64,000 nt of DNA from Caenorhabditis elegans (lineage: Eukaryota; Nematoda; Chromadorea; Rhabditida; Rhabditidae), in NCBI RefSeq assembly GCF_000002985.6, contig NC_003279.8, forward strand, positions 14,198,001-14,262,000, given 5' to 3'. A program made the position numbers and the translations under genes. Positions 28,801 through 47,883 of the stretch are shown piece after piece (the stretch's first letter is position 1; every line of letters begins with the position of its first letter). The notes beneath the pieces were generated by a model. It was not told the origin of the DNA. It did not search any database and saw nothing but the letters and a program-made list of their open reading frames with translations.

Positions 28801-31800
28801 GCTTAGGCTTAGGCTTAGGCTTAGGCTTAATCTTAGACCTAGTTTTATACTTAGGCTTAGGTTTAGGCTTTGACTTTTTCACAGGCTTAGGCTTAGGCTT
28901 AGGCCTATTTTCAAGCTTAGGATCAGGCCTAGACTTAAGCTTGGGCTTCGGCTTAGGCTTTGACCCCTCTTCGAAATCCCAACTCACCGTAGGCCTCGGA
29001 AATAGCTGCAAGATCAACTGTAGGGATATCCTTATCACCTGGCTGGCTAGCCGGTAGGGCCGTCCAAATCGTGGAGGAATCTGATGTGGTGGCCATTCTG
29101 AAGATCAAATTTAAGGCGCGAAGGGTGCTAAAAACTCACGAGAAATTCGAATTCCCGGTTGGGTCAAGCGAGGGATCCAATGTCGTCCCGGTGCCCAGCA
29201 GGAAGGTTTTTAGTTTTTGACCCTGAAATTAGAAAGTATAAAAAATTTGCAACATTTTGAAAATTTACAACTTTTTTCTATCTAGCCTAGTTTAAGAGTT
29301 ATAAGGTGATAAAGTTTCCCTAAATTTTTTTGACATGAGAGAGCGTGGAGTAGGGGGAGACGCAGCACGCTCTCGTCGTCTCTCCCCTCCCCTCCCTCCA
29401 TGCTCTTTCTTCACTTAATCTTCAAACCCCTGTAACTTTGCAGGGGAACGAGCTATAAAAAAGTTGTCAACTAACAAAATGTAGGAAATTTTAAACCGAA
29501 TAATTTGTTAATTGACAACTTTTCTTTAGCTACTCCAGATTTCGAGTTATAAGGGTTTGAAGTTGTTCCGCGAAAAAAAATTGTGTCAAAAATTTCAAGT
29601 AGGGCTATTTTCATCATAATCTTGTTAAAATCCACCATCACTAATTATTCAATCTAACAAGCATTTAAGTAGGGAGATACACACATCTGCTAGCTAAGTG
29701 CACACCTGCTGACTAATTGAGTGTCATCTATACCGCCAGCCTAATGGACCTTATAGTAGGCAAAACGGAGAAATTCTCAGTTAGTTGGTTTGGTTAAAAA
29801 AATAATTTTCCCAACATTTCATAAATTAAAAAAAAAATTGCCCGATTGGCTCAGTGTGATTTTCAGCGGCTACCAATCTCACGGCCATGGTTCGAACCCC
29901 CGCTGTGGTATATATTTTTATTTAGGTGTTTTTATACCAAAGCGGGCCTGCTGAATACAAATTTCTAGTTAGCAATATTTTAAGTTCTCGGAAATTTTGA
30001 TTTTCAGAAAAACAACTTTTTTAAAGGCTTGTATTGCACATTTAGCCTAGAGTACCCTAAAAATGAGGTGAATATACTGAAAAAAACTTATCAAAATAAT
30101 TGAAAATCAGCAAAAATTGTTTTTTTTTATTTTTCAGAAAAATTGCCCGATTGGCTCAGTGTGATTTTCAACGGCAACCAATCTCATGACCATGGTTCGA
30201 ACCCCCGCTGTGGCATATATTTTTGTTTTGGTGTTTGTATACTAAACCGGGTCTGCTGGATACAAATTTCGAGTTAGCAATATTTTAAGTTCTCGGAAAT
30301 CTTTATTTCTAGCAAAGAACATATATTTTTCTTGTAATTTGGATCAAGGGTGTCGGTTTTTCGATTTTTCCAGAAAATCGAAAAATTAAAAATTTTCGAT
30401 TTTTCGTTTTTTCAAATTCGAAAAATCGAAAATTTTTCGTTTTTCGATTTTCCGAAAAAAACGAAAAATCGAAAATCGAAAAATTTTTCGATTTTTGAAA
30501 TAAACTTACAAAACAGCTGATAATGTTTTATTTTTGAACCTTTTCGTTGTAGGAGGTTGTAAATATCTATTCAAAAAGGGTTCCCCCACAGGGAAGGATA
30601 ATCAAAACAGTAAATTTTCACTGAAAAACATCGAAAAATCGAAAAATCGAAAAAATCAAAAAAATCGAAAAATCGAAAAATGACACCCTTGATTCGGATG
30701 TACATTAAGCCTAGAATACCCTAAAAATGAGGCTAATATACTGAAAAAAAAAACTTAACAAAATAATTGAAAATCAGCAAAAATCCCTCATTTTTAAAAA
30801 TTTTCAGAAAAGTTGTCCAAATGGCTCTGTGCGATTTTCAGCGGCTACCAAAGTTACAACCAGGGCTCGAACCCCCGCTGTGGCATATATTTTTATTTAG
30901 GTGTTTTTATACTAAACCGGGGAATTTTTTATCAAATCTTGAAATGCTCACTGAGCCCAGGATATTTTAAAAACCAGCTCAAAATTTGGAGAAATTGCCT
31001 ACAAACCAACAAAAACCCTCGATTTTCAAAATTTTCAAAAAAATTGACCGTATGGCTCAGTGGGATTCTCGGCGTCTACCAATCTCACGGCCCGGGTTCG
31101 AACCCCCGCTGTGGCATATATTTTTTCTTTTTCTTTTTCAATGCTTTTACAGACTTCTGAACCCCATCAGGACCCCTCCAAAGCTTGCGAATTTCCGTTC
31201 TCAGGAATAATGACGAAACCCGAGCCACCACTCCATTTACATACAGCTCTCAGCTTCTTCTTCCCTCACTACTTTCAAGGCGTCGGACGGGGTGCTTCAC
31301 AAACAATGCCATCTGTATTTGTTTGCTCGGCGAGCAGTAGCACAGGAGCTTTACATATGTCGCTGTTGTTCAAATACACGGTAGTGGAGGTGATAACTAG
31401 GCCGGGGGGCAGTGAAGTAATGAGTGAAAAAATTAAAATTTTGATAAAAACCGGCCAAAAAAATTTGACTTGAATCAATCCCGGAGGGTTCCCCAAAAGC
31501 CCTAAAACTTAGTAAGAGCCCGGTGCGGAAAAAAGGTATAAGGGTATCTAGTTTCAAGTGACCGCCGGCGAACAGGTAAGAAAAGAGCCGCGGGAGTTTT
31601 CTCAGAGCTCCCCGCCACCAAACAGGTGTTGCGATTTCTACCATAACTCGGTGGAGAGCATAGTTCGAGGAAAGTTGTCAACTAGCAAAATATTACTTGG
31701 AAAATTTCCTACAATTTTGTGGTTGGAAACTTTTTTCTTGCTATTCTAGTTTTAAAGTTACGAGGGTTTTAAAAATTTAAAAATAAGCGCCAGGAAATTT

Positions 31801-33242
31801 TCAAACTCATCTCTTATGCTCATTGAGCCATTTTCTGACTCGTGACTAAAATTTTCGACATGCCTATACCCAAATTAGTCTAAAACACCAAAAAAAAAAA
31901 ATTAAGCCACAGCGCGGACTCGAACCCGGTCTTCTGCTTGGAAGCCCACCAAAATCCCACTGAGCCACTTGCACCAAATTTTCGAAATTTTATTTTTGGA
32001 TTTTTTACTGCTTTGCCACAGAAATTGTGCATCGAAGAGCCCCAAGACCTCTGAATTCGATCCCGTCACCACAGGGGGTCCCCCCAACTGTTGCAAGTTG
32101 GCTAATGATGGCTATATAATGATGTAATATGGTTGCGTGAGGGGGTATCTAGACTCAACTGGGTATTGGAAAAAGACTAAGGGGTGCCTAAAATCAACTA
32201 GTCGCATAAATTGACCAAAAAAAAAATCCAAAATTTACAATAGGGATGTACATCATAATTTTTGATAATTTTTCTGATTAATGTCAGTTTAAAAGGCGAT
32301 TCGGAGCAAGTTCCTAGTTAAAAATGTATCTTTTTGGAAAAATAGTGAAAATCAAAAATAAGTGTGCTCATTGAGCACCAGGTGACCCAGACATTTGTTT
32401 ACGTGGATTATAAACTTCGCTAATTATTGATTTGTTTATTTTTCCGAGTTGCAACAAAGTTCGGAATTTTCTACTAAAAAACTTCAACCTAGAAGTTTAA
32501 AAGATAGAAATTTGAACTCAGCGCACTCAAATTAATCTAGAAACAGTAAAATGAAAAAATTGTGCCACAGTGCGGACTCGAACCCCGGTCGTCAGATTGG
32601 AAGTCATCCGAAATCCCACTGCGCCACTTGGACCAAATTTTCGAAATTGCGAAAAATGAAGAGTAAAAGCTCTGAAAAAAGTTTATTTCAGCTTAAAAAT
32701 CTACATTTTTATCTGAAACCCCAACCCCGTACCATTAAAATTCGCAGTTCTACTCGTTTTGAGCTCCGAGAGCTTTTTTTCTGGGTTACAAGGAAATTAA
32801 AGCCAAGAATCATTTATATAGCTCATCCACACAAAAACAAAAATAAATGCTACAGCGGGGACTCGAACCCCGGGCTTCTGCTCGGAAGCTGTCCAAAAAC
32901 CCACTGCGCCATTCAGGAACATTTTTAAGATTAGAAATATCGATTTTTCGAGTTTTTTAAATTAAAGTTCACGGTTTAGAAAACTCACAAAATACAGAGA
33001 ACATTGTAGGAGAGGTTAGCTAGAACTGTCTAGGTACTGAATGGGGAAAGGAGGTACATGGAGGGGGGGGGGGGGGGGGGGGGGGGGGTGTCTTGGAAGA
33101 GCTCATCTTACAGACAGACCCTTCTCGCAGAACTTTCTCCAGTTTCATCACCATGCCGATATTTGATACTTTTGGGATGGGGTACCGGGCGCCCGGGGGC
33201 GCCCTGAAGCGACATATAACTCACCTCAGAATCTGGAAGCAT
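22873..33242 (-). CDS. eya-1: Eyes absent homolog (transcription cofactor / Asp-based phosphatase), 503 aa
   Basis: Eyes absent proteins pair with Six homeodomain factors in the nucleus and carry a HAD-type protein tyrosine phosphatase domain. Nine exons join in frame: 33225-33242, 29140-29222, 28988-29097, 27135-27317, 26962-27089, 25803-26129, 24816-25020, 24371-24741, 22873-22959. The tiny first exon encodes MLPDSE followed by GTGAGT. Residues to about 200 are rich in Tyr/Ser/Thr/Ala (QYQYNSYPQYAMYT), the usual transactivation region. A basic patch KEKKPKVSKKKK precedes the domain. Motif I is VFIWDIDD, keeping the nucleophile and second Asp (about D237, D239) where vertebrate proteins have WDLDET. 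Later family motifs are VPVENIYSISKQGKESVFE, RFG and ITSGD (about D467). The end NTDLDKLYSALDNFLL matches the family C terminus. The intron after SAKR uses a GTTGGT donor. The 3.9 kb intron 1 and most others are repeat-filled. The symbol is from family recognition; the 5' exon is the least certain part. Confidence 0.93.
23064..23525. repeat. AATTGCCGGAATT / GGCAAATT array in eya-1 last intron
   Basis: A ~30 bp degenerate repeat of the form AAATTGCCGGAATTAAAAAT then TTCCGGC occurs about 13 times. The block starts AGGGGTGGGAATTTCGGGCA and ends CTGCCGCCGACCCTTGAGG, so its borders resemble those of the foldback elements at 12.8 and 30.3 kb. Confidence 0.75.
23530..24330. repeat. Degenerate foldback units and partial CACGTGG element in eya-1 intron
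   Basis: Weakly conserved units (TAACAGACGAAATGTAGCAA; ATCAAAAAGTTGCTCC; GTAACTTTTGATAACTTT-like arms) fill the intron. A truncated foldback copy at 24016-24090 has TTTTTGGGAAAAAAATTCCC, GTAGATCAAACCATTATGGG and the terminal CGGACACCACAT. No coding signal is seen. Confidence 0.55.
25021..25800. other. AT-rich eya-1 intron
   Basis: It holds a loose repeat of TTTTTGATATTTTTTGCTGA and TTTTTGGCTCAAAATGCTCC (about 25190, 25365 and 25720). Nothing else is recognised. Confidence 0.5.
26155..26510. repeat. Palindromic repeat unit in eya-1 intron 5
   Basis: TAGCCAAGCTATCAAAAAGT arms with a GTGGCGGCGGGGAGAGTGCG / CTGCGTCTCCCCCTTCTCCA block, the same family as in the bestrophin introns. Confidence 0.7.
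26670..26740 (+). repeat. tRNA-derived repeat, copy 1
   Basis: AAGTGGCTCAATGCGATTTC gives an A-box-like segment and GGGGTTCGAGTCCGC a B box. The acceptor ends do not pair, so it is not a functional tRNA. It is the first of 27 related copies between here and 47.9 kb, inside eya-1 intron 5. Confidence 0.75.
27350..28150. repeat. Palindromic repeat array in eya-1 intron
   Basis: Four units near 27400, 27620, 27790 and 27960 share CAACTAACGAAATACTC and TGTGAGGAATATTTTGTTAG. This subfamily is distinct from the bestrophin intron units (TGTAGG replaced by ACTC). One unit includes GGAGACGCAGTGTGCTATAG. Confidence 0.75.
28308..28356. repeat. GT/CA microsatellite pair
   Basis: GGTGTGTGTGTGTATG is separated by TCACAGAG from a run of ACACACACACACACACAC, so the two halves can form a hairpin. 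Confidence 0.85.
28584..28972 (+). repeat. Degenerate TTAGGC (telomere-type) interstitial array
   Basis: About 390 bases are built on the hexamer TTAGGC, the C. elegans telomere unit. Runs of perfect units such as CTTAGGCTTAGGCTTAGGCT occur at several points, among single-base variants (TTAAGC, TTCGGC, CTAGGC, TTAGGT). It lies in the eya-1 intron between exons 3 and 4, beginning about 16 bases past the splice donor. Long open frames on both strands here are just the translation of a 6-base repeat. Confidence 0.93.
29225..29570. repeat. Palindromic repeat unit in eya-1 intron 1
   Basis: GAGAGCGTGGAGTAGGGGGA, ACGCAGCACGCTCTCGTCGT and GTTGTCAACTAACAAAATGT arms place it in the bestrophin-intron family. 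The next ~270 bases to 29840 show no recognised feature. Confidence 0.68.
29840..31116 (+). repeat. tRNA-derived repeats, copies 2-5 (four, plus strand)
   Basis: Copies at 29840-29909, 30145-30215, 30815-30885 and 31046-31116. They share TTGGCTCAGTGTGATTTTC-type A boxes and GGTTCGAACCCCCGCTGTGG B boxes. This 5' subgroup has GAACCCCC where later copies have GAGTCCGC. Each is followed by ATATATTTTT and, in several, by a GTGTTTTTATAC phrase, showing that flanking sequence moved with the tRNA part. Confidence 0.8.
30344..30684. mobile_element. Foldback element with TCGATTTTT simple-sequence interior
   Basis: Termini TCAAGGGTGTCGGTTTTTCG and AAAATGACACCCTTGA are inverted repeats. The arms are runs of AAAATCGAAAAATTT and complements; the centre (about 30,500-30,620) is unique-looking. 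It lies between tRNA-derived copies 3 and 4 in eya-1 intron 1. Confidence 0.75.
31117..31905. other. Unique stretch within eya-1 intron 1
   Basis: From about 31,140 to 31,560 the sequence is less AT-rich and free of the local repeat families (for example CGTCGGACGGGGTGCTTCAC). No exon with proper borders could be built on either strand. A regulatory role for eya-1 is possible but unproven. A single palindromic repeat unit follows at 31,665-31,760. Confidence 0.4.
31906..32920 (-). repeat. tRNA-derived repeats, copies 6-8 (three, minus strand)
   Basis: Copies at 31906-31975, 32564-32634 and 32849-32920, all reading GCCACAGYGCGGACTCGAAC (or GCTACAGCGGGG) on the plus strand and ending in the complement of the A box, CCCACTGAGCCA or CCCACTGCGCCA. 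The ~590 bases between copies 6 and 7 hold no recognised feature. Confidence 0.8.
33063..33088 (+). repeat. Poly-G tract, 26 G
   Basis: An uninterrupted run of 26 guanines, upstream-proximal in eya-1 intron 1. Long G runs are known to be unstable in worms lacking the DOG-1 helicase. Confidence 0.95.
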
Positions 33243-33530
33243 TTTTTTTTTGATTCAGGAATTGCGAACAATTTCAGATATATAGATTTGGAAATTGTTG
33301 AGCAAAAATTTGAGCAACTGGCACGCAGAAGCAGGGAGAGACTGACTCTGATGTATTTGTGTGTGTGTGTGTGCTCTCGTTTTCTCTGCCGGCTCTCTGA
33401 GCTCTCGGAGCTCTCACCCCTGAGCTACCGTATGTCTGAGCCAGTCGGCTGTCTGCTCGGAGCTCCGCCTTTTGGTGGAAAATCGCATTATTTTCGGATT
33501 CTGAAAAATTAATTTTGAAAAAAAAGTTTT
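33243..33530 (-). promoter_or_regulatory. eya-1: Putative eya-1 5' UTR and proximal promoter
   Basis: Immediately upstream of the MLPDSE start, read on the minus strand, lies a non-repetitive, GC-richer block. It has CACACACACAAATACATCAG, CTCTCTCCCTGCTTCTGCG, and direct repeats of GAGCTC. The base composition differs from the AT-rich intron below and the tRNA-derived repeat above. No TATA box was identified. Confidence 0.45.
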
Positions 33531-34372
33531 GTACGAGTGACTCAGTGGGATTTTGGAGGGCTACCAATCTGACGACCGGGGTTCGACTCCGCACTGTGGC
33601 ATAATTTTTTTTCTTTGTTGGTTCGACTATATAAGCCCTGCTGAACACGAATTTTTAACATACAAATTTTTAACTTTTTATTGAAAATAAACTATCAAGC
33701 TTAAATTTTAATAGCTCATTGCACCTAGCACACATGAGACATATGCTGAACAGTCCCAAAAAATGCTCAAAATTTTTAAAAATCAGCTCAAACCTCGATT
33801 TTCTGAAAATTTGCTCGAATGGCTCAGTGGGATTTTGGAGGGCTTCCAATCTGACAACCGGGGTTCGAGTCCGCACTGTGTCATAAATTTTTTTATTTAT
33901 TGGTTTGACTATACAAGCCCTGCTGAACACGGATTTCTGACTTATATACTATTTGTAATAACATTTTCAACATTTTGGGGATATATATATATCCCTTCGA
34001 AGCTTGGTCTCCAATAGCTTGAACAACTTTAAAACAAGTTCAAAATTGGAAAAAAAAAATATATCGAAATTGCTGAAAAATCAGCTCAAACCGTAATTTT
34101 CAAGTTTTTCTGAAAATTTGGCCGAATGGCTCAGTGGGATTTTGGCCGGCTACCAATCTTACGACCGGGGTTCGAGTCCGCACTGTGGCATGAATTTTTG
34201 TTTTGCTGTTCTCAGAATAATACAAATCTCCTGAATTCGAATTTTCAACTCTCAAAACCAGAAAGACTTGCTAGGTCGGCTCAAACTTAATTTCTTTTTG
34301 TGTACGAGTGGCTCAGTGGGATTCTAGCCAGCTACCAATCTGAGGTCCGGGGTTCGAGTCCGCGATGTGGCA
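33531..34372 (+). repeat. tRNA-derived repeats, copies 9-12 (four, plus strand)
   Basis: Copies at 33531-33601, 33813-33883, 34120-34190 and 34302-34372. All have GGCTCAGTGGGATTTTGG-type A boxes (copy 12 GGGATTCTAG), GGGGTTCGAGTCCGC B boxes (copy 9 GACTCC) and a TGTGGCATAA or equivalent end. Confidence 0.82.
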
Positions 34373-34775
34373 TAATTTTTTTTTTGGTGTTATTCTACTA
34401 AATTTCGACTTTCCGAGTTCGAATTCGGTCAAAAATTAGACATTTCCACACTGCTTTGTGATTTTTTCGAACTTTTATACCTTCTCAAAAAATCGATATT
34501 ATTTGTTGATTTTACCCCCTTCCCTTATTTTCCTCTCATTTCTGAGAGTATAGGGAGATGGGGAGCGTGCGAAAGCGGCGAAGCGATCATATTTCAGTTT
34601 TCGGGAGCACAGAGTCGAGACGCTGACTTCAATTTTAGTAGTATATGGGACGAGGGACGATTTTGCAATGGAATATTGATTTTGGAGGAAACCCATTGAG
34701 TTTTAAGGCATGGGACCTTGAAATTCGGATTCAGAATGTCGATATTAGCCAAATAACACTAAAACAAAAAAATAT

Positions 34776-34845
34776 GCCAAGGCGCGGACTCGAACCCAGG
34801 TGGTGAAATTGGTAGTCACCCAAAATCCCACTGAGCCAGTCGGAC
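34776..34845 (-). repeat. tRNA-derived repeat, copy 13
   Basis: GCCAAGGCGCGGACTCGAAC to CCCACTGAGCCAGTCGGAC on the plus strand. The interval 34,373-34,775 has no recognised feature apart from AT-rich sequence and a small GC-richer block near 34,560. Confidence 0.78.
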
Positions 34846-35034
34846 AAAAAGTTGAAAAGTTCTAGAAAATATGAAATTTGAATAGCAAAATAAAATTAGA
34901 AGTCTTAATAAGAAGTTTTCAATAATTCAGGTACTGCTTTCAAAAATTAGCAGGTCGAATTCGGAAACTCTCGAGAAAAATGCTTCTGTGGGCTTCTCGA
35001 ACAGTTTATGAACCTGGAAGTTTGAAAAATAAAA

Positions 35035-37966
35035 TTAAAATGTTGAATTTAGACTAGTGGGCTTCACTCCGCAGACGTATCCTTTGTAGCATATATTTGT
35101 GGGTACCAGCCCTGCGGTTGACATGTTGCATCTAAAAAATTCGAATATTTGGAAAAAATTGGATTTTTTAAATAAAAAAATTCACAAAAAATGGTCCAAC
35201 TGGCGCATAGTGAAAGTGTTATATTCCTTCCCTTTCCCAAAAATGTCAATTTTTCGAGAAAAAACATTAAAGCTCAAGTTTCCATAGCTATGTGAGCTTA
35301 GAAGAGCGTCAGAGTATGCTGAAAAGCCGCAAAAATATCAAAAATTGTTGAAAGTTAGAAAAAACCACGTTTTCCAATAATTTTCAGAAACATGTCCAAA
35401 TGGCGCAGTGGGATTTTGGCGGGCTTCCAATCAAACGACCGGGGTTCGAGTCCGCTTTGGCAAAAAAAATTTTGTTTTTGAGTTACTGGACTAATTAAAC
35501 TGTGCTGAGTTCAAATTTCTAGGTTTTTTTACATGTAAAACGGCAGTAATAGTATAGAAAATTCAAAATTTCAAACTTCAGTTAAAAAACCTACCCATTA
35601 TCATCGATTCCAACTAGAACAGTATTCCCAATCAACAAATTTAAGCATTTTGCAAATTGATCTTGAGTTGTAAGACCATCTGGCTGGTCAGGCGGTGCAA
35701 ATTGATAGCCAGCATATGCACTGAGCAGCGGATCCGTGTAGGAAAATTCCTGAAAAGTTTTGAGATTCTATGTGACATATGGAGTCTAGTTTACTCACAT
35801 TTGTACTATTACATGATGCACTTTTCTTAGCTGGAGGCATACAAGATGATTTTCGCTCTCCGTTCACCCAATACCCATATCTATAGTACCCGGAGTCCTT
35901 TTTCAGAAGTGGCTGGCCAATACCTGCAAAACATTATTTTTTTTGAACGGAAATAATAAAATTCGGGTTCAGCGGGTTCAAATTAGGAAAATAACACTAA
36001 AACAAATTTTATGCCACAGCGCGGACTCGAACCCCGGTCGTCAGACTGGTTGTTTTCCAAAATCCCACTGAGCCATTCGGACAATTTTTTGAAAAATGCT
36101 CGAAATTTGGAAACTTGGTTGGAAATTGAAAATTAGGAATTTTTCTACTAGTTAAATGCTCGAAATTGGATTGAAACACGGCAAAGTGTTTTTTTTTCTC
36201 ACGATTTAACAAGATTGGTCATTTTAAATGAAAATTAGAGATTTCAAACTTGAAAAATCGAACTCAAATGTTCCAATTTAGTCTAAAAACAGAAAACAAA
36301 AAAATTATGCCACAGTGCGGACTCGAACCCCGGTCGTCAGATTGGTAGCTCTCCAGAATCCCATTGAGCCATTCGGACAAAAATTCCAAAACATCGTTTT
36401 ATAGGTAATTCGAGGTACTGATCTCATTTTTCTAAGTTTTAAAACACAATATCATCATATTTTGCTTGAAATCTTACCATAAACATAATTAGTCTCCTCC
36501 ATACTCTGAAGTCCGCTCAAAATAGCACTAGGTTCTGAAGCTTTGCATTTTGCCACACTATCCACTTGAGTTATGCATTGATTTACTGATGTTACCTGTA
36601 ACAAAACATATCAAATTTTGTTGACAATCGGCAACTCACCCCAATACACCAAAATCCTTTCGGTCTTTTGAAAAGTCGGTAACCGACCGGACAGTTCAGA
36701 GTAATTGTCGTTGTAAAAATCCATTGACTTTCTGAATTTACGGTCATTGTATACTCCAAATAGCTTGTGTCAGTTGCCACGGAGTTCTGAAAACGCGAAT
36801 TTCGATTTTTGTCCGAATGGCTCAGTAGGATTTTGGAGGACTGCCAAGCAGAAGGCCTGGGTTCGAGTCCGCACAGTGGCATTAATTTTTCTTTTTGTGT
36901 TTTTAGACTAAATCAATGACGCTGAGTTCAAAATTCAACATTTCAACTCTTATATTTTGTCGAGAAGCCTAAAATCACTGTAAATTATCAAAAATTTTAC
37001 TTTTTTCTTGAAAGTGCAAGTTTGGGCACGAAATTTGTCTTAAAATAGCTACAGCCAAAACTAGACTAAGTTCGTCTTAAAATTCAACATTTTTAGCATT
37101 TTTAAAGCAAATGTCCGAATGGCTCAGTTGGATTTTGGAGGGCCTCCAATCACACGACCGGGGTTCGAGTCCGCACTGTGGTCTAATTTTTTGTTTTGGG
37201 TATATTGAACTAATTCGAAGCTTTTGAGTTTAAATTTTGACCCTTTTCACAATTCGGGGCCAGACTGAGTGTTTTATGCCCAATTTTTGAAACTGACCTT
37301 CATAGTATTTGCTGTTGCTGTTTTTGAGCACGTATTTGCGGTAAACTCCATTTTTACAGCGATTTTGAGCTCAGTACTGCTTTCTCTTTCTCTCAGCCTT
37401 TTTAATTGCCCCAAACTGAACACCTGGCAGTTTTTAGAGCCCTTTTCCACGTAGACAGCCTGAAAATTGGAAGATTAGCCAAAATTCCTGATAAAAACCC
37501 AAAGTTATGGCATAATTTAAGTTAAAATATGGTGGGAACACATAAATTAAGTTAATTACACCAAAATAAAAATATGTGCCACAGTGCGGACTCGAACCCA
37601 GGTCGTGAGATTGGTGGTCGGCGAAAATTCCACTGAGCCATTTGGACATTTTTTTCGAAAATTTTGAAAAATTTGGTTCTTATGGAAAAATTCTGCTGGA
37701 AATTATTTTTGATGTTAAAATATGCATAAAATTACATAATATCTCCAAAATCCAGTTTTTTTCAAAAATTCTCGGAAAATTTTTTTTTCGATTTTTTTAT
37801 TAAATTTTTTGTATTTTTAGATTTATATTTTTAGGTAACTTACTACACAAGTATCCATACTAAAACAATAACCACTACAAAAAGAAATTGTTGCAGTTCG
37901 GTTACTGTAGTTCGGTGAGACCACTGGTTGTCCAAAGATCAGCACCATTTTGTATAAGGATTCTAC
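35035..37966 (-). CDS. PAN_3 (CW) / C-type-lectin-like protein A, 5' end not found
   Basis: Paralog of the three plus-strand genes at 48-56 kb; such nematode proteins are usually secreted. Seven minus-strand exons join in frame: 37844-37966, 37298-37459, 36640-36786, 36478-36595, 35799-35923, 35595-35749, 35035-35131. The first exon reads VESLYKMVLIFGQPVV, matching the mature start of the paralogs; the next has a PAN_3-like Cys pattern. Later exons hold NCPVGYRLFKRPKGFWCIG, QCITQ...AILSGLQ, RYGYWVNGERKSSCM and the final CNMS...CYKGYVCGVKP, equivalent to the paralogs' ending FVCGTRP. A signal-peptide exon expected upstream is not evident before 39.3 kb; translation could begin at the internal Met (37946-37948), which would give 302 aa without a signal. 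tRNA-derived repeats occupy several introns. Confidence 0.85.
35394..35462 (+). repeat. tRNA-derived repeat, copy 14
   Basis: GTCCAAATGGCGCAGTGGGA to GGGGTTCGAGTCCGC, in the last intron of the minus-strand PAN_3 gene A. The 3' end is shortened to TTTGGCA. Confidence 0.8.
36013..36378 (-). repeat. tRNA-derived repeats, copies 15-16
   Basis: Copies at 36013-36082 and 36309-36378, both reading GCGGACTCGAACCCCGGTCG on the plus strand, in the same intron of gene A and in the transcript sense of that gene. Confidence 0.82.
36811..37183 (+). repeat. tRNA-derived repeats, copies 17-18
   Basis: Copies at 36811-36881 and 37113-37183, beginning GTCCGAATGGCTCAG and ending in the B box GGTTCGAGTCCGCAC. 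They lie in an intron of gene A in the opposite sense to it. Confidence 0.82.
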
Positions 37967-38120
37967 CTAAAATTTTTTTTTTTGAAGAATTGTAATAATT
38001 TTGGTTACAGCATGTCCGATTGTCTATAGTTGCACTGAAACACAATTTTCTGCGGCAGGCCGGACTCGAACCCCGGACCCCGATTGGTAGCCCTGCAAAA
38101 TCCCACTGCGCCATTCGGAC
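37578..38120 (-). repeat. tRNA-derived repeats, copies 19-20
   Basis: Copies at 37578-37647 and 38052-38120. Copy 20 is the most diverged of this group (GCGGCAGGCCGGACTCGAAC). Confidence 0.78.
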
Positions 38121-38389
38121 ATTTTAGTTTAATGTGAAGGATTTTGCAAAAAAAGTTATAATATATTTTCAGTTTGTTTTTCAGAAATTCAGTTTCACTG
38201 TTGAAAATAAATTTTTCCAGAATAATTCCTTATACCCGTTCAGCCTAGGAAAAGTGCATGAAGAAGCCTACATTGAAGAAGATTTCAATCTTTTTTGCAT
38301 GTTATGAAGAGTGCCAAAGGTATCGGAGATTATGATCTTTTGAATTGGAGAAATTATTTTCCAAACTGCACACATGGGCAACATAACCT

Positions 38390-39228: not shown

Positions 39229-39398
39229 GATCAAAAATACATACCCGATATGTTTCACTTTCGAAAAGTACGTGACGAAATGAATATCTAGATTAAAATC
39301 CTCGATTTCAAAATTCATACGATCGCTTTATTCATACGAATCGTTCAAAAGTTCATTCAAAAGACGATTTTTATAGATTTCTGGCCTATAGTCTTAAG

Positions 39399-42300
39399 AT
39401 GAAACGGTTCACAAGCAAAAAACAGTGTATGTTTATAATTGTGATATTCAACTTGGTTCTATTACTGTTTTACTCGATAAGTATTATTTTCAAAAATGAA
39501 AGCAGAATTTCGCCAGAAAAGTTTCCAGTTTCTCATGCTTTCATAAATTCTGTCTATTATTATCCAACTTCCAAATCGTGAGTATTTTTCATTCAATACG
39601 GTTATATAATAGTATTATTCCCCTACTACAGTCTTGGTAAGAATGCATTAGCCTTCACAATGGCTTTAGATCAATACAGTCACAGTATGAAAAACCACAA
39701 GTTTACGGTTCTCGGCTACAACTCGACACATTCAACGGAATCCATTGCAACTTCACAAACAGAAGGAATTCGAATATGTCGATATGTTACATTGATGGCG
39801 AGGACTAATACAGTAGATAATTTGGAGAAAATTAAAATTGAGTCAAATGGGGTTTCGGTTGAGGTAAGGGGCCCCACTCTTCAACAATCTTTAAAAAAAA
39901 TTTTTTTTTTAAGATTCCGTTCAAAATCGCGCGATATACTGCACCGAAGCCTGTCATCATATGTATCTCTCCACAGTTTGCAGCGGAGCAGTGGCAAATG
40001 TTTCTAATGCATGTTCATGTGGCTAACAGGTAAAAAGTAGCAGGGCTCTATGCAGTGTCGTGTTGCGACTAAAAGCTAGATATGGTCAATTCAAAACTAG
40101 CTCGAATGGGCTTAAACTGGCTTAAAACAAGGCCAAGACTAGTTTAAACTAGTCTAGGCTAGACAAAACCAGCTCAAAATTGTTCAAATTAAATTAAACA
40201 AGTTCAAAGTCTAAACCAACTGAAAACTAGCTCAATATAGTTTTAACTAGCTCAAAGAGCTTTATCTATTCACAGGTAAAACAGACTAGCTTAAACTGGT
40301 CAAGACTGGCTAAAAAGTTCAAACTAATTCAAAACAGCTCAAACTAGTCTTTTTTCTATAATCTAAAAAACTAGCTCTTAGCTAGCTCAAAACTAGCTCC
40401 AACTAGTCTAAACCAGCTGAAAACTAGCTCAACCTAGTCTTAACTCTAGCTCAAAGAGCTCAAAGTATTCACTATTAGCTCAGACTAGCTTAAACTACTC
40501 AAGACTGGCCGAAAAAGTTCAAACTATTATAATTCAAAATAGCTTACACTAGTCTACACTAGCAAAAAACCAGCTCAAACTAGTCTAAAATAGCTTAAAA
40601 CTAGCTCAAACCTAGGCCAACACTAGTTCAAACTAGTGTAAACCAGCTGAAAACTAGCTCAACCTAATCTCAACTAGCTCAAAAAGCTGAAACTATTCAA
40701 AATTAGTTCAGACCAGCTCAAAAAGTTTAAACTATTTCAAAATATCTTACACTAATTTACACTAGCTGAAAACCAGCTTAAACTAGTCTGAACTAGCTAA
40801 AAACTAGCTCAAAGCTAGTTTAAACTAGTCTAGGCTATCCAAAACCAGCTCAAAATAGTTCAAACTAAGTCATAGCAAGCTCAAACTAGCCTAGATCCGC
40901 TCAAAACTTACTCAGAACTGGTTCAAACTAGCTCAAAACTAGCTTAAACTAGCGCAAACTAGTCTGAACTAGTTGAGAACGAGCTCTAACTAGTTTAAAC
41001 TAGTCTGAACTAGCTCAAGCCTAGCTCAAACTAGTTCCACGTTATACTAGTTGCAGTCCGAATTATTATGATCCATACTGTACAGATTCGGAGGTCATCT
41101 CCACATCTATCTCACATCAATCATCGAATCATATTTCAAGCTAATGAAGGAATATGAACGTCAAGGCTACATAACTCTAGACTACTGGCTGCGTATGAAG
41201 TTCTCGGACCCTAAAACTCCATACATTGAGCCGAATGAAAATGTTGAGTGGAGACATCAAGCGGGTGCACAAACGGATTGTCTACTTCAATACAAGGAAG
41301 CCGCAGAATACATTGCGTTTTTTGATATGGATGATATCTTGTTCCCGAAGGAGTACCCGATCTATCTGGAAGAGTTCAACTCGGTACTTGCAGCACACCC
41401 CGGCACCAATTACTTGTTTTATGGGAGAAGGGAGCATGAATTTGTTAAAGGTATGGGTATGGGTATATGGGGGTGTTAAAACATAGGTACCCACTTAATT
41501 CGCTCAATTTCAGCCTCAACTCTGTCCGACTTCAGTTTTACCGACCTTGTCAAAAGTCTCCGTTCATCTCAAACCATAAAAAATGGAAAAGTCGTTGTAA
41601 GACCCGATGCATACAATTCCACGTGGATCCACAATAGCCAGCATGTCAGTTTCGATACGAGGTGCTATATACGACTTAACAGTTCAAACTTAACAGTAGT
41701 CTTGTTTCAGTGTTAAAGTGAAAAGTCCATCATTGGTACATGTGCAGCTGCCGGTTGATAAAAATGGGAAAAGGAATCATTCTAGGGATTTGTGGAAGAT
41801 TGAGTTTGGATCATTGAATGAGACAATTCGAGAGGAAGATGTCAGAGCAATCGAGGAGGACATCAATAGGTAAACTTTGCAGAGTAGATGGTAGCAGGGG
41901 GGTACTGTAGGGATACTGTAGGAGTAGTGTGTGGGTACAGGGATACTGTAGAGGTACTGTAGGATTACTGTAGGATTACTGTAGTTTTGAAATAATTGAT
42001 TTTTTGTCATTTGAAGGGATATTGGTTGTGGTTAGTGGAAAGATATGGGCGGGATACTGTAGCAGTACTGTATGGGTTTGTAGGGGTACTGTAGGATAAC
42101 TGTAGTTTTAGAAAAATTGATTTTTCTCTCTTTTGAAGGGCTATTGCTTTGGGGTTAGTGAGGGGTTAGTGGGGGGATATGGTCGGGGTACTGTGGCAGT
42201 ACTGTATGGGTTTGTAGGGGTACTGTAGAATAACTGTAGTTTTAGAAACATTGATTTTTCTGTCTTTTGAAGGGACATGGGTTTGGGGTTAGTGAGGGGT

Positions 42301-43175
42301 TAGTAGGGGGATATGGCCGGGGTACCGTAAGTACTGTAAGGGTTACTGTAGAACTATGGTAGGATTACTGTAGTTTGGGAAAAATTGACTTTTCGTCTTT
42401 TGAAGAGATATTGGTTTGGGGTTAGTGGGGGGAGGGAATATGGTCGGGGTACTGTGGCAGTACTGTATGGGTTTGTAGGGGTACTGTAGGATAACTGTAG
42501 TTTTAGAAAAATTGATTTTTCTGTCTTTTAAGGGCTTATGGGTTTGGGGTTAGTGGGGGATAGGGTCGGGGTACTGTAGCAATGCTGTAGAGGCACTGTA
42601 GGACTACGGTGGGATTACTGTAGTTGTGGAAAAATTAATTGTTTTTGTATTTTGAAGGGATATAGGTTTGGGGTTAGTTAGGGGTTAGGGGGCAAGGATA
42701 TGGTACTGTATGAGTACTGTAGGATTACTGTAGTTTGGGAAAAATTGACTTTTCAGCTTTTTAAGAGATATTGGTTTGGGGTTAGTGGGGGATATGGTCG
42801 GAGTACTGTAGCAGTACTGTAGGGGTTCTGTAGGAGTACTATAGAAGTACTGTTGATGTACTGTATTACTCAATTTTTTCCAGAATGAAGAATTCAACAG
42901 TTATCTCCACACTAGCACTACTCCTCCCAAACTCTGATTTCTACTTGCCAATCGTTTTTAAATGTTACTTTGACGCTTTTTACAAAGCCGCATTCGTGGC
43001 TCGAACCGGTGTTCCGAGATGCCCAAACGCGGATATTTGTGATCTACCACAACGAGAAGACTATAAGTGTATTCATTCAGATGCTCAATACATTTCTGGA
43101 CCCGACATGCGTCCTGTTACTTATCATTTTTCAACTAGTACCTTTTGGTCGAAAGATATTGGGTGTTATCAGTAA
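39399..43175 (+). CDS. Glycosyltransferase family 92 (DUF23) type II membrane protein, 496 aa
   Basis: Family 92 enzymes are Golgi type II membrane glycosyltransferases; the C. elegans founder is a galactosyltransferase acting on N-glycan core fucose. Seven exons: 39399-39577, 39632-39863, 39914-40029, 41086-41450, 41514-41661, 41711-41869, 42884-43175, ending in TAA. Residues 9-31 ([20 protein letters not shown]) form the signal anchor. Family landmarks are [31 protein letters not shown], and the metal-binding [10 protein letters not shown] with Asp residues at 256, 258 and 259, preceded by QTDCLLQY. The C-terminal exon has five Cys ([20 protein letters not shown]). Introns 3 and 6 are entirely minisatellite. 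Acceptor substrate is unknown; whether this copy is active cannot be told from sequence alone. Confidence 0.92.
40060..41060 (+). repeat. CTAGCTCAAA minisatellite filling glycosyltransferase intron 3
   Basis: About 1 kb of imperfect repeats of ACTAGCTCAAA, ACTAGTCTAAAC and AACCAGCTCAAA, with a loose ~60-180 base higher-order pattern (AACTAGCTCAACCTAGTCT recurs). It begins a few bases past the GTAAAA donor and stops about 25 bases before the acceptor. Confidence 0.9.
41890..42875 (+). repeat. TACTGTAG minisatellite with ~120 bp higher-order units, intron 6
   Basis: The small unit GTACTGTAGG or GGGTACTGTAG sits inside larger repeats: GGTTTGGGGTTAGTG, GATATGGTCGGGGTACTGT, TTTTAGAAAAATTGATTTTT. 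Higher-order copies start near 42,010, 42,130, 42,265, 42,400, 42,530, 42,660 and 42,765. The small unit is the reverse complement of CTACAGTA at 38.4-39.2 kb. Confidence 0.88.
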
Positions 43176-43305
43176 AAGTTTTTGCGGCTTTGTATGTGTT
43201 TGAGCTCTAAAAAACAAGGCTCTGCGTGATTTTTGAGATTTTGATACTATAAATTTTGAAGTTTGCAAGTCAGATTTAGTCTAAAATCACCTTTAAAAAA
43301 TTAAT

Positions 43306-43375
43306 GCCACAGTGCGGACTCGAACCCCGGTCGTGTGATTGGAAGCCCTTCAAAATCCCACTGAGCCATTTGGAC
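43306..43375 (-). repeat. tRNA-derived repeat, copy 21
   Basis: GCCACAGTGCGGACTCGAAC to CCCACTGAGCCATTTGGAC on the plus strand, between the convergent glycosyltransferase and four-pass membrane genes. The 43.4-44.05 kb interval is otherwise AT-rich without recognised features. Confidence 0.8.
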
Positions 43376-44048
43376 ATTTTTCTTAAAATTGGTCAAAATT
43401 ATCCAAAACTTTGAGAAACCAACTTTTGGTTAGTTTTCTAATTTTTTTGTATTTCATTTTATTCTCTCCTCATGGCAAACTATAAACCCGGAAACTAAAA
43501 AAAATCTGGCTCACTTTCGAAAATATCGCATAGCACAAAATCAGTCGACCAAGAAAGAGCATGTTTGAAGCGGAAATATGCAAAAAATGAAGTCATTTTT
43601 TTCCCTGAATTTTTGGAAATCGCCGAGACATTGTTTCCATGGGCTCCCAAACGGCTATTATTTTGGGGGAGCATTTGCAAATGGGATTTTTTTTTGTCTG
43701 AATATTGTTCTCTGTCGGACTGGGAAAAAGAAAAATTTGCGAAATACGGGGAAGAATAGACAATATTTGGGCCAAGTGAATTTGGTCTTCAACAAAAATC
43801 TGAAAATCAAACAAAAAATAAATTTTGGAAAAAAATTGCATTTTTTAATTTTTTTTAATTTTTGATTTATAGCTAATAATATTATTAATTGCATAATATT
43901 GCCAAAATAATATTTTATTGGTTTACAAAGTAAAATAAAAAATCATAAAAATATCGATTTTTCCGAAAAAATTTTTTTGAATTTTTTGAAATTTTTTTTT
44001 TCAAAAATCGTCACTTTTTTTCCAAAAAACTTGAAATATTATCAATTT

Positions 44049-46432
44049 TTACAAATATCTCTGTCCATTATTTGCATCATTTCTTCTCTCATCTCCATAT
44101 GGATACTGATCTCCCATGGCTACGGAGCCATGCTTATTATCCTTGGGGAAGTCGTTGACCACTTGCCAATTGACTCGATTCTCATTATCGATTGATTCGT
44201 AGTGGCAGAGATGTCTGAAAATGTGTTGAATTGCAAAAAATAAAAATAAAATACGTTTTTAAATTTTTTGAAAAAAAACATTTTTTTTTTGAAAAATTTC
44301 CAAAAAAAAATTTTCAAAAATTTTTCAAACTCAATTTTGTACTATAATTTTCAATTTTAACAGTATTCTGAGTTAAAACTCACTTATACAGACGATAAAC
44401 AATGTAAAGGAAGAAAATCTCAAGAAGTGCCACCAGGAGGTAGATAACGATAATCATGATGCCGAGCAGGAAGGTTGCTGTAATAAAAACATGATATAAC
44501 TTGTTAACTGACTACTTTTTTGAGAATTTCTGATATGCATGTTGAAGCTGACAATTTTTGCTTCTCTTTGCTAATTGACAACTTTTCACTGGCATTTTTA
44601 GTTTTAGAGATATACCCTCTTGTCCAATTTTCCTAAACTTTCAGAAAACTAAGCTCGAAGAGCTGTTCCTGGCTTTGGAACTTAAACTTTTGAAATCACC
44701 ATGTTTAAATTAGTCTAATTACACAAAAACAAAAAATTATGCCACTGTGCGGACTCGAACCCCGGACGTCTGATTGGTGGTCGGCCAAAATTCCACTGAG
44801 CCACTTGAACCCTTTTTTTTTGAAAATTAAAAAAAAACATTTGGGATCCTATTTTTTGTGTAATTTTTCTATTTAAATAGTGTTTCTTGCTGAAAAGTAC
44901 AATTTTATGTAAAAACTCTTATTTTCTAAATCTTTTTCAGCACTTCTGTGCTCCGTGAGCTTTTTTTTCAGTTTTTTGGTAAAAAATTTAGACTCATCTA
45001 GTCAAAGTTGATATACTCACACAAAAATAAAAATTTACGCCACAGTGCGGACTCGAACCCCGGACGTGTGATTGGTGTTCGTCCAAAATCTCACTGCGCC
45101 ATTCGGACATTTTTTTTTTGCGAAATTCAGCTTATAGGTTTTTAATTCACTGAATTTGATTTTCTGAGTCTTTTTTTGAATAATTTCTTCAATTTTTTCT
45201 TGAGAATTTGAAAAAACCAAGTTTTTTCGGGCTAAAACAAAAAAAACTCACAGTCATCACTCATATAATAGTTGCTCACTCCAAGAAGATTTCGAATTCC
45301 ACGATAAGCGCCAAAAAGCATCAGAATCGCTACAATAACTGCGACCAAAATCAGGAAAATCACCAAAAAGATCTGCGCCGACAAATGTGGAATTAGCCAG
45401 CGAGCATTTTCCGATTTGATTGCGTAGACGAAAAGAGCAATTGCGATTAAAATAATAAACACTGAAATAATGCCAAGAAGGAACCAAATAAAGTAGTTTG
45501 AGCCAAATAAGTGGAAATTCCGGAACAATCCATATACAGCCAAGGCGCAGAGGAATAGCTCCACTACTGCGACAACAAGCCCGGCGGTCTGTAGGAAAAT
45601 CGACTTTTGGGAGGGTAGGAGCTGAGATATAAAAAAGTTGTCACGTTTGAAATTGTAGCTCACATTGTTAGCTATATTTTATTAGTTGGAAATTTTTTGA
45701 TAGCTCTTTCAGTTTTCGAGATATAAAGGTTTAAAAATTGCTTATTTAAAAATTTGATTTTTTAATTCAAATTTCATATTTGTGGGTTCCGAGAGCTGTT
45801 TAATCTGCAAAATGTGAAAATTTGATCTTAAAAACTACGAATTCCTCAAATAGCAACAAAAAAAAATTTATGCCAGAGCGCGGACTCGAACCCTGGTCGT
45901 GTGATCTGTAGCCCACCAAAATCCCACTGAGCCATTCGGACATTTTTCTTGATTATTTGTTAAAAAAAAAAACTTCTTTGAAGTGGAATTCCATTTTAAA
46001 TATGTATAAATTGGCATATTAGATGTTGTGGAAAAGTTAAAATTACAGCTGTTTGAGAGGGATTTTTTTTTCGAATTTTAGAAAATTTTTGGGCTCCGCG
46101 ATCATTTTCAGCTTAAAGTCTAAGGAATTCTAGCTCAGAATTAACAATTTAGTCAATACACAACAAAACAAAAAATGTATGCCAGAGCGTGGACTCGAAC
46201 TGGTCGTGAGATTGGCGACCCTATGAAATCCCACTGAGCCATTCGGACATTTTTCTTGATTTTCAGTTTTTCTAATTTTTTTTTGAAATACATGTTTTAA
46301 AACGCTCTAAATTTGATTTTCAAGTTTATACATTTAAAAATTCAAGTTGAAAAGTCGAAATTTTGATTTTTAAAGTAACTAAATGACAAATCTCACCTTC
46401 AGATTGGAACAAGGCACATAGGATTTTGCCAT
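44049..46432 (-). CDS. Four-pass membrane protein, 210 aa
   Basis: Family not firmly recognised; the layout resembles LAPTM/tetraspan-type small endosomal proteins, which is only a suggestion. Four exons join in frame: 46397-46432, 45252-45588, 44384-44477, 44049-44214. The first encodes MAKSYVPCSNLK. Four hydrophobic helices lie at about residues 14-35 (GLVVAVVELFLCALAVYGLF), 44-68, 83-108 (IFLVIFLILVAVIVAILMLF) and 124-150 (FLLGIMIIVIYLLVALLEIF). No signal peptide precedes the first, so both ends are probably cytosolic. The tail of about 55 residues is hydrophilic and has HYESID and QYPYGDERR; YESI fits a YxxF-type (tyrosine plus bulky hydrophobic) sorting motif. Introns carry four tRNA-derived repeats. 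Confidence 0.85.
44741..45108 (-). repeat. tRNA-derived repeats, copies 22-23
   Basis: Copies at 44741-44810 and 45039-45108, in intron 2 of the four-pass membrane protein gene and in its transcript sense. Each is preceded on the plus strand by ACACAAAAAC/TAAAA, the complement of the family's conserved TTTTGTTTTGGTGT 3' flank. Confidence 0.82.
45872..46248 (-). repeat. tRNA-derived repeats, copies 24-25
   Basis: Copies at 45872-45941 (GCCAGAGCGCGGACTCGAAC) and 46181-46248 (GCCAGAGCGTGGACTCGAAC, with a few bases lost before GGTCGTGAG), in intron 1 of the four-pass gene. The two share the GCCAGAG variant, so one may derive from the other. Confidence 0.8.
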
Positions 46433-47495
46433 GATTTCCTGGTAGAATATACCTAAAAATTGGAGTTTTACAGTGAAAAAAGAAGTATATTACAAATTGT
46501 GACGTCATTCGCGTGGGGTGAGAGGGTAGGGGGGAAAGATGATAGGAAAATGTGTGAAAAGGGGATATAAAACAGGGGAAAAGGAAAAATAATAGAAAAG
46601 AAAAATAGTAAAAGCTGATATAATTGAATTAACAATTAAATTAATTTCGGGAGAATTTTTTAGGTTGAAAAAATTGAAAAAAAAACTGCTGAACTCAACT
46701 GGCTTATTCAAACCTTCATAACTTAGCAGAGCACAAAGATATCTAAAAATTGTCAACTAACAAATTGTAGCAAATTTTATGAAGATCAATTTTTATGAAG
46801 ATCATTTTGTTAGTTGACAACTTTTTAATAACTCGATTTGCCGCGGAGTTACAAGAGTTTTAAGCTGGGGGGTTGTGCACCGATACCCCCCCCCCCCCCC
46901 CCCCGGCGGGAGGGGTCATGTCAGGGGCCCTAATGGGGAAGGTGTTCTATAGACACCCCGTGTCAATACCTATATTATGTTTGATTTCTCGCATTACCTG
47001 AGCAAACTTTTCAATTTTCGGAGTAGTCTAACCTACAGAGGCTCTACATACATCCTAAACTTCCAAAATTTTCACCCTAAAATTCTGAAATTTAACTTAA
47101 AAATTTAAACTTCTATTTCAAAAATCAAAAACCCCAAAAATCGTAGGTGGGTAGCGGTGTGGGAACAAAGAGAAAGAAGAAGAAGAAGCCGGAGAAAAGT
47201 GTAACCGATCATTTCGAGAGCTGCGAGAGAGTGAGAGAGACGCAGAGAAAGAGAGCGGGTGTTAGGATGTGTAAACGGGGCTCCCGGGAAGATCACGACA
47301 TGTGCTCTCTCCATCATCGCTGAGGGAGATGAAGAGAATACCAAAATATCTCTTCTTTTTATCTTTTCCAGAGCAGATAAATCAGAAGGCACATGGAAAA
47401 AGTCAGCTGAAAACATGAAGCATTTGATCTAAAATTTTTTTAAAAATTGGGATTTTCGAGAAAATTTGAAGGTTTTCTAGATTTTGAAAATTTTT
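46433..47495. other. Upstream region of the four-pass gene with poly-C and foldback unit
   Basis: It contains one palindromic repeat unit (about 46,715-46,865), a run of 19 C at 46886-46904, and a purine-rich block (about 47,160-47,260, AGAAGAAGAAGAAG and GAGAGAGTGAGAGAGACGC). The last is likely promoter or 5' leader for the minus-strand gene. No gene was accepted here. Confidence 0.5.
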
Positions 47496-47883
47496 GTCCA
47501 AGTGGCGCAGTGGGATTTTTAAGGGCTTCCAATCTGACGTCCGTGGTTCGAGTCCGCAGTGTGGCATACATTTTTGTTTTGGTGTTCTTATACTATTTTG
47601 GGTGTTTGAAATTCAAATTGTCAAGTTTTAAAGTCGGAAATTGCTTGTGGGGCTCAAAAAATAAATCAATAAAACAACGGCGGATACTGCGAATTCTGCA
47701 TTAAAATGCAAATTTCAAATTGTGAAAATATGAGAAATCAGTTAAAATATTTGAAAATCTTGTTTTCCAGCATTTTAATTCAATTTCCCCCATTTTTAAA
47801 ACATTTATTTTTGTCCACGTGGCGCAGTTGGATTTTGGAGGGCTTCCAATCTGACGTCCGGGGTTCGAGTCCGCGCTGTGGCA
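47496..47883 (+). repeat. tRNA-derived repeats, copies 26-27 (last)
   Basis: Copies at 47496-47566 and 47813-47883, with GTCCAAGTGGCGCAGTGGGA and GTCCACGTGGCGCAG starts. They share GGCTTCCAATCTGACGTCCG and are each followed by a TTTTTGTTTTGGTGTT- or TTTTTGTCTCGGTGTT-type flank. None is seen beyond this point. Confidence 0.82.

What the first reader, a model, noticed from the sequence alone, without database searches (positions are those of the whole stretch)
29840..47883. Regional burst of a tRNA-derived repeat family: 27 copies between 26.7 and 47.9 kb, none outside
I count 27 ~70 bp copies with A box (GGCTCAGTGGGATTTTGG) and B box (GGGGTTCGAGTCCGC). They occur in both orientations in introns and spacers of eya-1, PAN_3 gene A, the four-pass gene and flanks. 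The first 26 kb and the last 16 kb have none. Many copies share a short 3' flank (TTTTTGTTTTGGTGTTTTTA then GACTAA), so the moving unit is longer than the tRNA part. Acceptor-stem pairing is lost. This looks like a SINE-like, Pol III-promoted family with strong local insertion preference or segmental spread. Density, orientation switching and the flank are seen; mobility is inference.
Basis: partly seen in the sequence, partly recalled or inferred. Interest (0 to 1): 0.75.

Follow-up and report, generated by a model that had tools for sequence, protein, structure and literature searches.

The report
Clustered tRNA-gene fossils kept as docking sites
This stretch of worm DNA holds 27 old copies of a broken tRNA gene whose two protein-docking boxes have been kept while much of the rest decayed, and the copies tend to sit at regular distances that nothing so far explains.

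Summary
In detail: a profile of the repeat finds exactly 27 copies at 26,665-47,894, both strands, none elsewhere in the window. The assembly matches C. elegans, chromosome I right arm. The cluster is not unique: 294 copies lie in the stretches I read on all five autosomes. It fits the published extra-TFIIIC sites/CeRep3 repeats (PMC6950938), so the kind is known. A recent SINE burst is not supported: copies are old, end repeats are only weakly above control, and the shared unit runs past a terminator-like T run. Two things were not in what I read of that paper. First, single copies keep the specified box A and box B positions four to six times better than middle and acceptor parts; no box-blind hit lacked both boxes. 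Second, neighbour spacing is quantised (about 143-153, 305, 460, 610 bp), also where the DNA between copies is unrelated. Best reading: tRNA-gene fossils retained as TFIIIC docking sites, multiplied locally by DNA duplication or conversion. Nucleosome-length spacing is a bold, unproven extension. TFIIIC binding at these 27 copies could not be tested here.

The parts
26665..26752 (+). copy 1, tRNA-like core with box A and box B
   Evidence: nhmmer hit
29834..29921 (+). copy 2
   Evidence: 90% identical over 179 nt to copy 3
30140..30226 (+). copy 3, 305 bp from copy 2
   Evidence: spacing
30810..30896 (+). copy 4
31040..31126 (+). copy 5
31894..31978 (-). copy 6
32553..32638 (-). copy 7
32837..32923 (-). 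copy 8, 285 bp from copy 7
   Evidence: spacing
33528..33612 (+). copy 9
33808..33893 (+). copy 10, 282 bp from copy 9
   Evidence: spacing
34114..34201 (+). copy 11, 307 bp from copy 10
   Evidence: spacing
34300..34383 (+). copy 12, 182 bp from copy 11
   Evidence: spacing
34764..34848 (-). copy 13
35389..35475 (+). copy 14
36002..36087 (-). copy 15
36298..36382 (-). copy 16, 296 bp from copy 15
   Evidence: spacing
36807..36892 (+). copy 17
37109..37194 (+). copy 18, 302 bp from copy 17
   Evidence: spacing
37566..37652 (-). copy 19
38040..38125 (-). copy 20
   Evidence: weakest hit, E 3.6e-20
43295..43380 (-). copy 21
   Evidence: best hit, E 1.1e-27
44728..44815 (-). copy 22
45027..45113 (-). 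copy 23, 298 bp from copy 22
   Evidence: spacing
45860..45946 (-). copy 24
46170..46253 (-). copy 25, 307 bp from copy 24
   Evidence: spacing
47493..47577 (+). copy 26
47809..47894 (+). copy 27, 317 bp from copy 26
   Evidence: spacing

Best explanation
The 27 repeats are fossils of a tRNA-type Pol III gene (head, box A, middle, box B, T-run terminator, about 60 bp of tail) that no longer score as tRNA and are kept as DNA docking sites for TFIIIC. They are one cluster of the C. elegans extra-TFIIIC/CeRep3 class, which favours one arm of each autosome. New copies within a cluster arise by DNA-level tandem and inverted duplication and probably by gene conversion between cores, which gives each cluster its own subfamily. 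Each copy is then held by purifying selection at the bases TFIIIC reads. Shown here: copy number, clustering, subfamilies, box-specific constraint on individual copies, homologous linkers in a subset, quantised spacing. Inferred: TFIIIC binding of these 27 copies, absence of Pol III, gene conversion, and a role at chromatin borders or the nuclear periphery.
For: 27 hits in the window; 245, then 294 copies in the stretches examined. Pattern box A-N20..30-box B: 61+123=184 in the genome, reversed control 0, 18 of them in this window; most listed places lie in arm clusters (one search lists only its first places). Substitutions on terminal branches per site: box A specified 4.3, box B specified 4.8, middle 20.2, acceptor halves 20.6 and 27.1, degenerate box positions 24.2; box specified against middle p=2.8e-7. 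Whole boxes with their degenerate positions: 11.5 and 11.5 changes per site against 32.7 in the middle (my sums). A box-blind profile gave 194 hits, all also found by the full profile (293); 180 carry box A and 186 box B within one mismatch, 172 both, so none lacks both. Cluster labels change 64 times on the core tree against 179.5 in 100 shuffles (min 172). Linkers are homologous in arrays (13 neighbouring pairs, mean excess 74.4; other same-cluster pairs 20.2; same chromosome 8.7; different chromosomes 5.1). Literature: PMC6950938 (abstract, Results part 1, sections 8, 9 and 11, passages) reports 504 TFIIIC sites without Pol III, 90% with box A and 87% with box B, 214 over CeRep3, over-represented on I right, II left, III left, IV left, V right.
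Against: No ChIP data could be read for these coordinates, so some of the 27 may bind Pol III or nothing. A T>=5 run follows box B in 214 of 233 copies against 857 of 4306 random 30-mers, which would suit copies that are, or recently were, transcribed. The split into specified and degenerate box positions rests on the recalled TFIIIC consensus and was made after I had seen the per-site rates. Other sites are also well kept: CC before box B, GATTTT after box A, the T run. The tree has 110 columns, its support values were not examined, and gene conversion among cores would disturb it. The box-blind profile was trained on copies found with boxes and searched only stretches chosen for box hits. 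No CeRep3 consensus was at hand. Of 60 pairs in the 305-bp peak, 32 show no spacer homology, so tandem duplication is not the whole account.
Confidence: 0.64

Rival explanations
1. A tRNA-derived SINE with strong local insertion preference: a Pol III transcript of the element is reverse transcribed and inserted near its source. (Raised from 0.15 to 0.18, and the main reading lowered from 0.66 to 0.64, on re-reading the >=7 nt row.)
For: tRNA-like head, box A/B, T run, shared tail, presence on all autosomes. Some pairs with 85-95% non-box core identity share no detectable flanking DNA, as if a discrete unit had been inserted. Of 26 isolated copies, 92.3% have a direct repeat of >=7 nt between the flanks against 67.1% in permuted flanks.
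Against: At longer lengths the excess is small (>=9 nt: 15.4% of 26 isolated against 11.2%; 20.7% of 241 against 16.4%). The shared tail lies beyond a T>=5 run; five Ts are given as the usual terminator of C. elegans type II Pol III genes (PMC12157501, passage read). Neighbouring linkers are homologous in part of the pairs.
Confidence: 0.18
2. A degenerate satellite: tandem arrays of ~153- or ~305-bp monomers whose tRNA-like part alone stayed recognisable.
For: 61 of 162 same-strand neighbours at 270-330 bp and 31 at 130-160, against 1 of 52 opposite-strand neighbours at 270-330. Strong linker homology at V 19.19 Mb, V 19.16 Mb and II 2.436 Mb. Homology was called in 28 of 60 pairs of the 305 peak (four blocks, each at its 95% limit, so some of these are chance).
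Against: No decayed core in the middle of 305-bp linkers (sense better than antisense in 29 of 61). Inner linkers of different chromosomes are hardly alike (excess 3.3, antisense 2.3). Head-to-head pairs are periodic too, which tandem duplication alone does not make. The chromosome IV cluster has no 305-bp pair.
Confidence: 0.14
3. Independent decay of many ordinary tRNA genes, with no shared history beyond tRNA.
For: CeRep3 is called suspected tRNA pseudogenes in PMC6950938. Some subfamilies differ strongly, e.g. the chromosome III cluster with another 5' half.
Against: Shared GATTTT after box A, shared 5' flank and tail, and cluster subfamilies. No tRNA reported in the window.
Confidence: 0.04

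Closest known systems
C. elegans extra-TFIIIC sites (Stutzman et al. 2020, PMC6950938)
   Same: Box A and box B together, dense clusters, favoured arm of each autosome, largely repeat-derived
   Different: The paper gives a median interval of 1207 bp; the words 'period' and 'spacing' do not occur in its main text (its figures were not seen). Here single elements are resolved and their spacing is quantised. TFIIIC occupancy of this cluster was not seen.
CeRep3 interspersed repeats
   Same: Suspected tRNA pseudogenes overlapping 214 extra-TFIIIC sites (PMC6950938)
tRNA-derived SINEs
   Same: tRNA-like head with Pol III boxes and a non-tRNA tail
   Different: Tail lies past a terminator-like T run; weak evidence of target-site duplications; local multiplication together with flanking DNA in part of the pairs
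mir-1829 Pol III units (PMC12157501, abstract and passages read)
   Same: Intronic units with box A, box B and a 5T terminator in C. elegans
   Different: Those are Pol III-transcribed and make small RNAs; no sequence comparison was made here
Nucleosome-length satellite DNA (recalled, no call)
   Same: Period near 153-160 bp or twice that
   Different: Here about half of the 305-bp spacers tested show no homology to their neighbours

Membership tests
extra-TFIIIC site cluster | box A and box B both present | tested here: met
   all 27 window copies align over both boxes; 172 of 194 box-blind hits carry both within one mismatch
extra-TFIIIC site cluster | clustered on the favoured autosome arms | tested here: met
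   most listed places on I 11-14.6 Mb, II 0.8-3.3 Mb, III 3.1 Mb, IV 1.6-2.4 Mb, V 17.7-20.5 Mb; exceptions such as III 11.25, II 14.97 and X 1.53 Mb (searches list only their first places)
extra-TFIIIC site cluster | TFIIIC bound without Pol III and TBP | not testable with these tools
extra-TFIIIC site cluster | near H3K9me3 regions, in lamina-associated domains | not testable with these tools
   no chromatin data held
CeRep3 | match to the CeRep3 consensus | not testable with these tools
   no repeat library held; one paper in the library names CeRep3
tRNA-derived SINE | tRNA-related head with box A/B | tested here: met
tRNA-derived SINE | target-site duplications | tested here: inconclusive
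   excess at >=7 nt in 26 isolated copies, little at >=8 or >=9 nt; copies are old
tRNA-derived SINE | mobile unit lies within the Pol III transcript | tested here: inconclusive
   T>=5 run after box B in 214 of 233 copies and a tail beyond it that is weakly shared between chromosomes (sense excess 2.07, antisense 0.63) speak against it; termination itself was not tested
functional tRNA gene | reported as tRNA by ARAGORN or Rfam | tested here: not met
   0 in the window; mean 3.0 of 5 T-stem pairs and 3.7 of 7 acceptor pairs in the 27 copies
satellite array | neighbouring monomers homologous over the full period | tested here: not met
   32 of 60 pairs in the 305 peak show no spacer homology, 28 do in at least one block

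The most novel reading that the evidence does not exclude
The elements form a ruler: each TFIIIC-bound element occupies about 150 bp and the DNA between neighbours is close to a whole number (0, 1, 2, 3...) of nucleosome-length steps of about 153-160 bp, in head-to-tail and head-to-head pairs, on several chromosomes, often with unrelated sequence in between. Selection or fixed-distance insertion would keep or make this, so the clusters would be nucleosome-phased TFIIIC barrier arrays on autosome arms.
Probability: 0.25. Interest if true: 0.82.

Novelty: new variant of a known kind. Interest (0 to 1): 0.55.

Why it matters
What extra-TFIIIC sites do is open, and C. elegans lacks CTCF (PMC6950938, Discussion). 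Box-specific constraint on individual copies suggests that something reads these sites after duplication, not only in their past. A spacing rule, if confirmed with nucleosome maps, would turn clusters of pseudogenes into a measurable chromatin structure, and published MNase and TFTC-3 ChIP data could test it directly.

Tried and rejected
Internal TTTT after box A as a Pol III stop: 171 of 233 copies have T>=4 there, but a paper gives five Ts as the usual C. elegans terminator (PMC12157501, passage), so I do not claim it.

Decayed middle copy inside 305-bp linkers: not found. Cross-chromosome homology of inner linkers: close to the antisense baseline. Plain tandem duplication as the whole cause of spacing: rejected, because 64 of 105 same-strand pairs at 210-1000 bp with all flanks available show no spacer homology and are still periodic (power 29.3 at 157 bp, 0 of 2000 jittered sets as high).

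Results against the ruler reading: tail-to-tail pairs are not significantly periodic (n=35, p=0.77 with period search; 0.06-0.12 at 157 bp in three sets). The 12 pairs with spacer homology beyond 335 bp are not periodic either (p=0.47). Closure of the three phases is 1.5-15 bp in all data (periods 150-163), 4-13 bp without the added loci, but 10-19 bp in the collapsed set and 15-25 bp in the added loci; the tail-to-tail phase in it is itself not significant. Seven of the eight head-to-head spacings in the added loci come from two neighbouring chromosome II sites and may be copies of one another. The 157-bp test period was chosen on data that include those tested. Spacings of 170-205 bp (13 of 162) fit no step, and the chromosome IV cluster has no 305-bp pair.

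One search failed on a division by zero and was rerun, corrected. Counts that need a located box B use 233 of 245 copies (12 dropped); trees use 241 of 245. Papers seen as listings only: those apart from the ones named; PMC2888827 was seen in passages and not used.

Full report
Where it is. The window is G000:C1:14198001-14262000 of a 100,286,401-base assembly in seven contigs.

The observation. A profile of the 27 copies finds those 27 and nothing else at E<=10. The consensus is TGTCCGAATGGCTCAGTGGGATTTTGGAnGGCTACCAATCTGACGACCGGGGTTCGAGTCCGCnCTGTGGCATAA. Ungapped column identity is high from about -20 to +80 relative to box A, weak to about +130, and near background beyond. The copies are old: mean pairwise identity in the window is 0.94 at specified box A sites, 0.98 at specified box B sites, 0.66 in the middle and 0.73 in the acceptor halves.

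Genome context. The box A 18-mer with up to two mismatches occurs 188 times in the genome against 2 for the reversed control. A stricter two-box pattern occurs 61+123 times against 0, 18 of them in this window. Most listed places are in clusters on autosome arms; a few stand alone, one of them on X. I read about 265 kb of such stretches besides the window, chosen because they had hits, so they are not a random sample. With the window they hold 245 copies, later 294 with six more loci. Each cluster has its own middle sequence, and cluster labels change 64 times on the core tree of 241 copies against a mean of 179.5 in 100 shuffles. Multiplication, or homogenisation by conversion, was therefore mostly local.

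Comparison with print. Stutzman et al. 2020 (PMC6950938; abstract, Results part 1, the sections on clustering and H3K9me3, Discussion, and passages) describe 504 TFIIIC-bound sites without Pol III, with both boxes. Of these, 214 overlap CeRep3, suspected tRNA pseudogenes. The sites are clustered, over-represented on I right, II left, III left, IV left and V right, over-represented in introns, and near but not in H3K9me3 regions. The present cluster very probably belongs to this class, although occupancy and the CeRep3 match could not be tested here. In the held library only that paper names CeRep3. 'extra-TFIIIC' with 'elegans' from 2020 on adds one paper on human and mouse SMARCAD1. 'tRNA pseudogenes' with 'chromosome arms' gives that paper alone. 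A SINE query gave ten papers, none with a title on this family. The library lacks most subscription papers.

Selection on the boxes. On the core tree, terminal-branch changes per site are 4.3 and 4.8 at specified box A and box B sites. They are 20.2 in the middle, 20.6 and 27.1 in the acceptor halves, and 24.2 at the degenerate box positions. The split into specified and degenerate positions uses the recalled consensus and was made; with whole boxes the figures are 11.5 and 11.5 changes per site against 32.7 in the middle (my sums). The CC before box B, the GATTTT after box A and the T run are also kept better than the middle. Because the counts are from terminal branches, the constraint acts on individual copies and not only on master copies. 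To check for bias from searching with boxes, I scrambled the box columns and searched again: 194 hits, every one also a full-model hit, 172 with both boxes within one mismatch and none lacking both. That profile was still trained on box-bearing copies and run on stretches chosen for them. T-stem pairing, by contrast, is poor in the window (mean 3.0 of 5). This looks like a protein-binding constraint on DNA more than like RNA function.

How copies multiply. Linkers of neighbouring pairs in arrays are homologous (13 pairs, mean excess score 74.4), most clearly at V 19.19 Mb. But several pairs with 85-95% non-box core identity have no detectably related flanks. Copies 2 and 3 in the window are 90% identical over 179 nt, from -15 to +163, with no clear homology outside. 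That points to conversion of cores or insertion of discrete units besides tandem duplication. Direct repeats between the flanks are slightly above control at >=9 nt, and clearly so only at >=7 nt in the 26 isolated copies (92.3% against 67.1%). A T>=5 run separates the core from the shared tail in 214 of 233 copies, so a Pol III transcript that stopped there would not carry the tail.

Spacing. Of 162 same-strand neighbours under 2 kb, 61 lie 270-330 bp apart, 31 at 130-160 and 13 at 170-205; of 52 opposite-strand neighbours one lies at 270-330. Further peaks stand at 440-500 (15), 595-625 (9) and 756-800 (5), with 3 at 206-269, 2 at 336-439, 4 at 501-594 and 5 at 626-755. The best period is about 160 bp (n=153, power 74.7 against a 99.7% jitter limit of 13.1). 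The same holds in the added loci alone (n=14, 0 of 400 jittered sets as high). The 305 peak is seen in 13 clusters on chromosomes I, II, III and V with medians of 293-313; the chromosome IV cluster has none. The peak stands where no spacer homology is found (32 pairs, mean 304.0, sd 11.8) as well as where it is found (28 pairs, mean 305.1, sd 6.9). The longer no-homology spacings are periodic too (n=30, power 10.5, p<0.001 of 2000 jitters), the 12 longer ones with homology are not (p=0.47). Head-to-head pairs are periodic (n=21 without the added loci, p=0.010; n=25 after collapsing near-equal spacings per cluster, 0 of 400). Tail-to-tail pairs are not. If each element covers a fixed footprint and spacers are whole steps, the three phases should close. 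They do so within 1.5-15 bp in all data, less well in the collapsed set and the added loci (10-25 bp); chance would average about 39 bp.

Judgement. Shown: the cluster, its genome-wide class, local subfamilies, box constraint and quantised spacing. Inferred: TFIIIC docking at these copies and a chromatin role. Speculative: nucleosomes as the ruler.

Noticed in passing
L026 (chromosome III, 3.10 Mb): Cluster whose copies share the 3' half and T run of the family but have another 5' half (GGCCTAGTGGTTAACACG type box A), perhaps an older form or a separate tRNA parent; its 305-class spacings have a median of 293 bp.
   Followed up: partly
window 38378 to at least 39166: Long degenerate array of an 11-bp CTACAGTA-type unit next to the cluster (family D2).
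   Followed up: no
window 28540-29008: Imperfect array of 6/12-bp units overlapping a Lys-Pro-rich open frame on the minus strand, about 4 kb from the EYA match.
   Followed up: no
window 41990-42800: Seven copies of a 62-nt block at 108-134 bp spacing, in part a 134-bp tandem repeat, downstream of the glycosyltransferase 92 match (families D15 and D12).
   Followed up: no
window 26462, 27660, 27797, 27977, 29238, 29486, 44549, 45660, 46788: Another dispersed ~65-bp repeat (GTTAGTTGACAACTTTTTTCTAGC type) shares this stretch of the window (family D11, identity 60-95%).
   Followed up: no
about +130 to +150 after several copies, e.g. near 32775, 44965 and 45800 (estimated): A short palindrome of the type AGCTC-N3-GAGCT follows several copies; not counted.
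   Followed up: no
L014/L015 (chromosome I, 12,628,204 and 12,639,523): Two copies with the same box A to box B sequence in opposite orientation 11.3 kb apart, like arms of a large inverted duplication.
   Followed up: no
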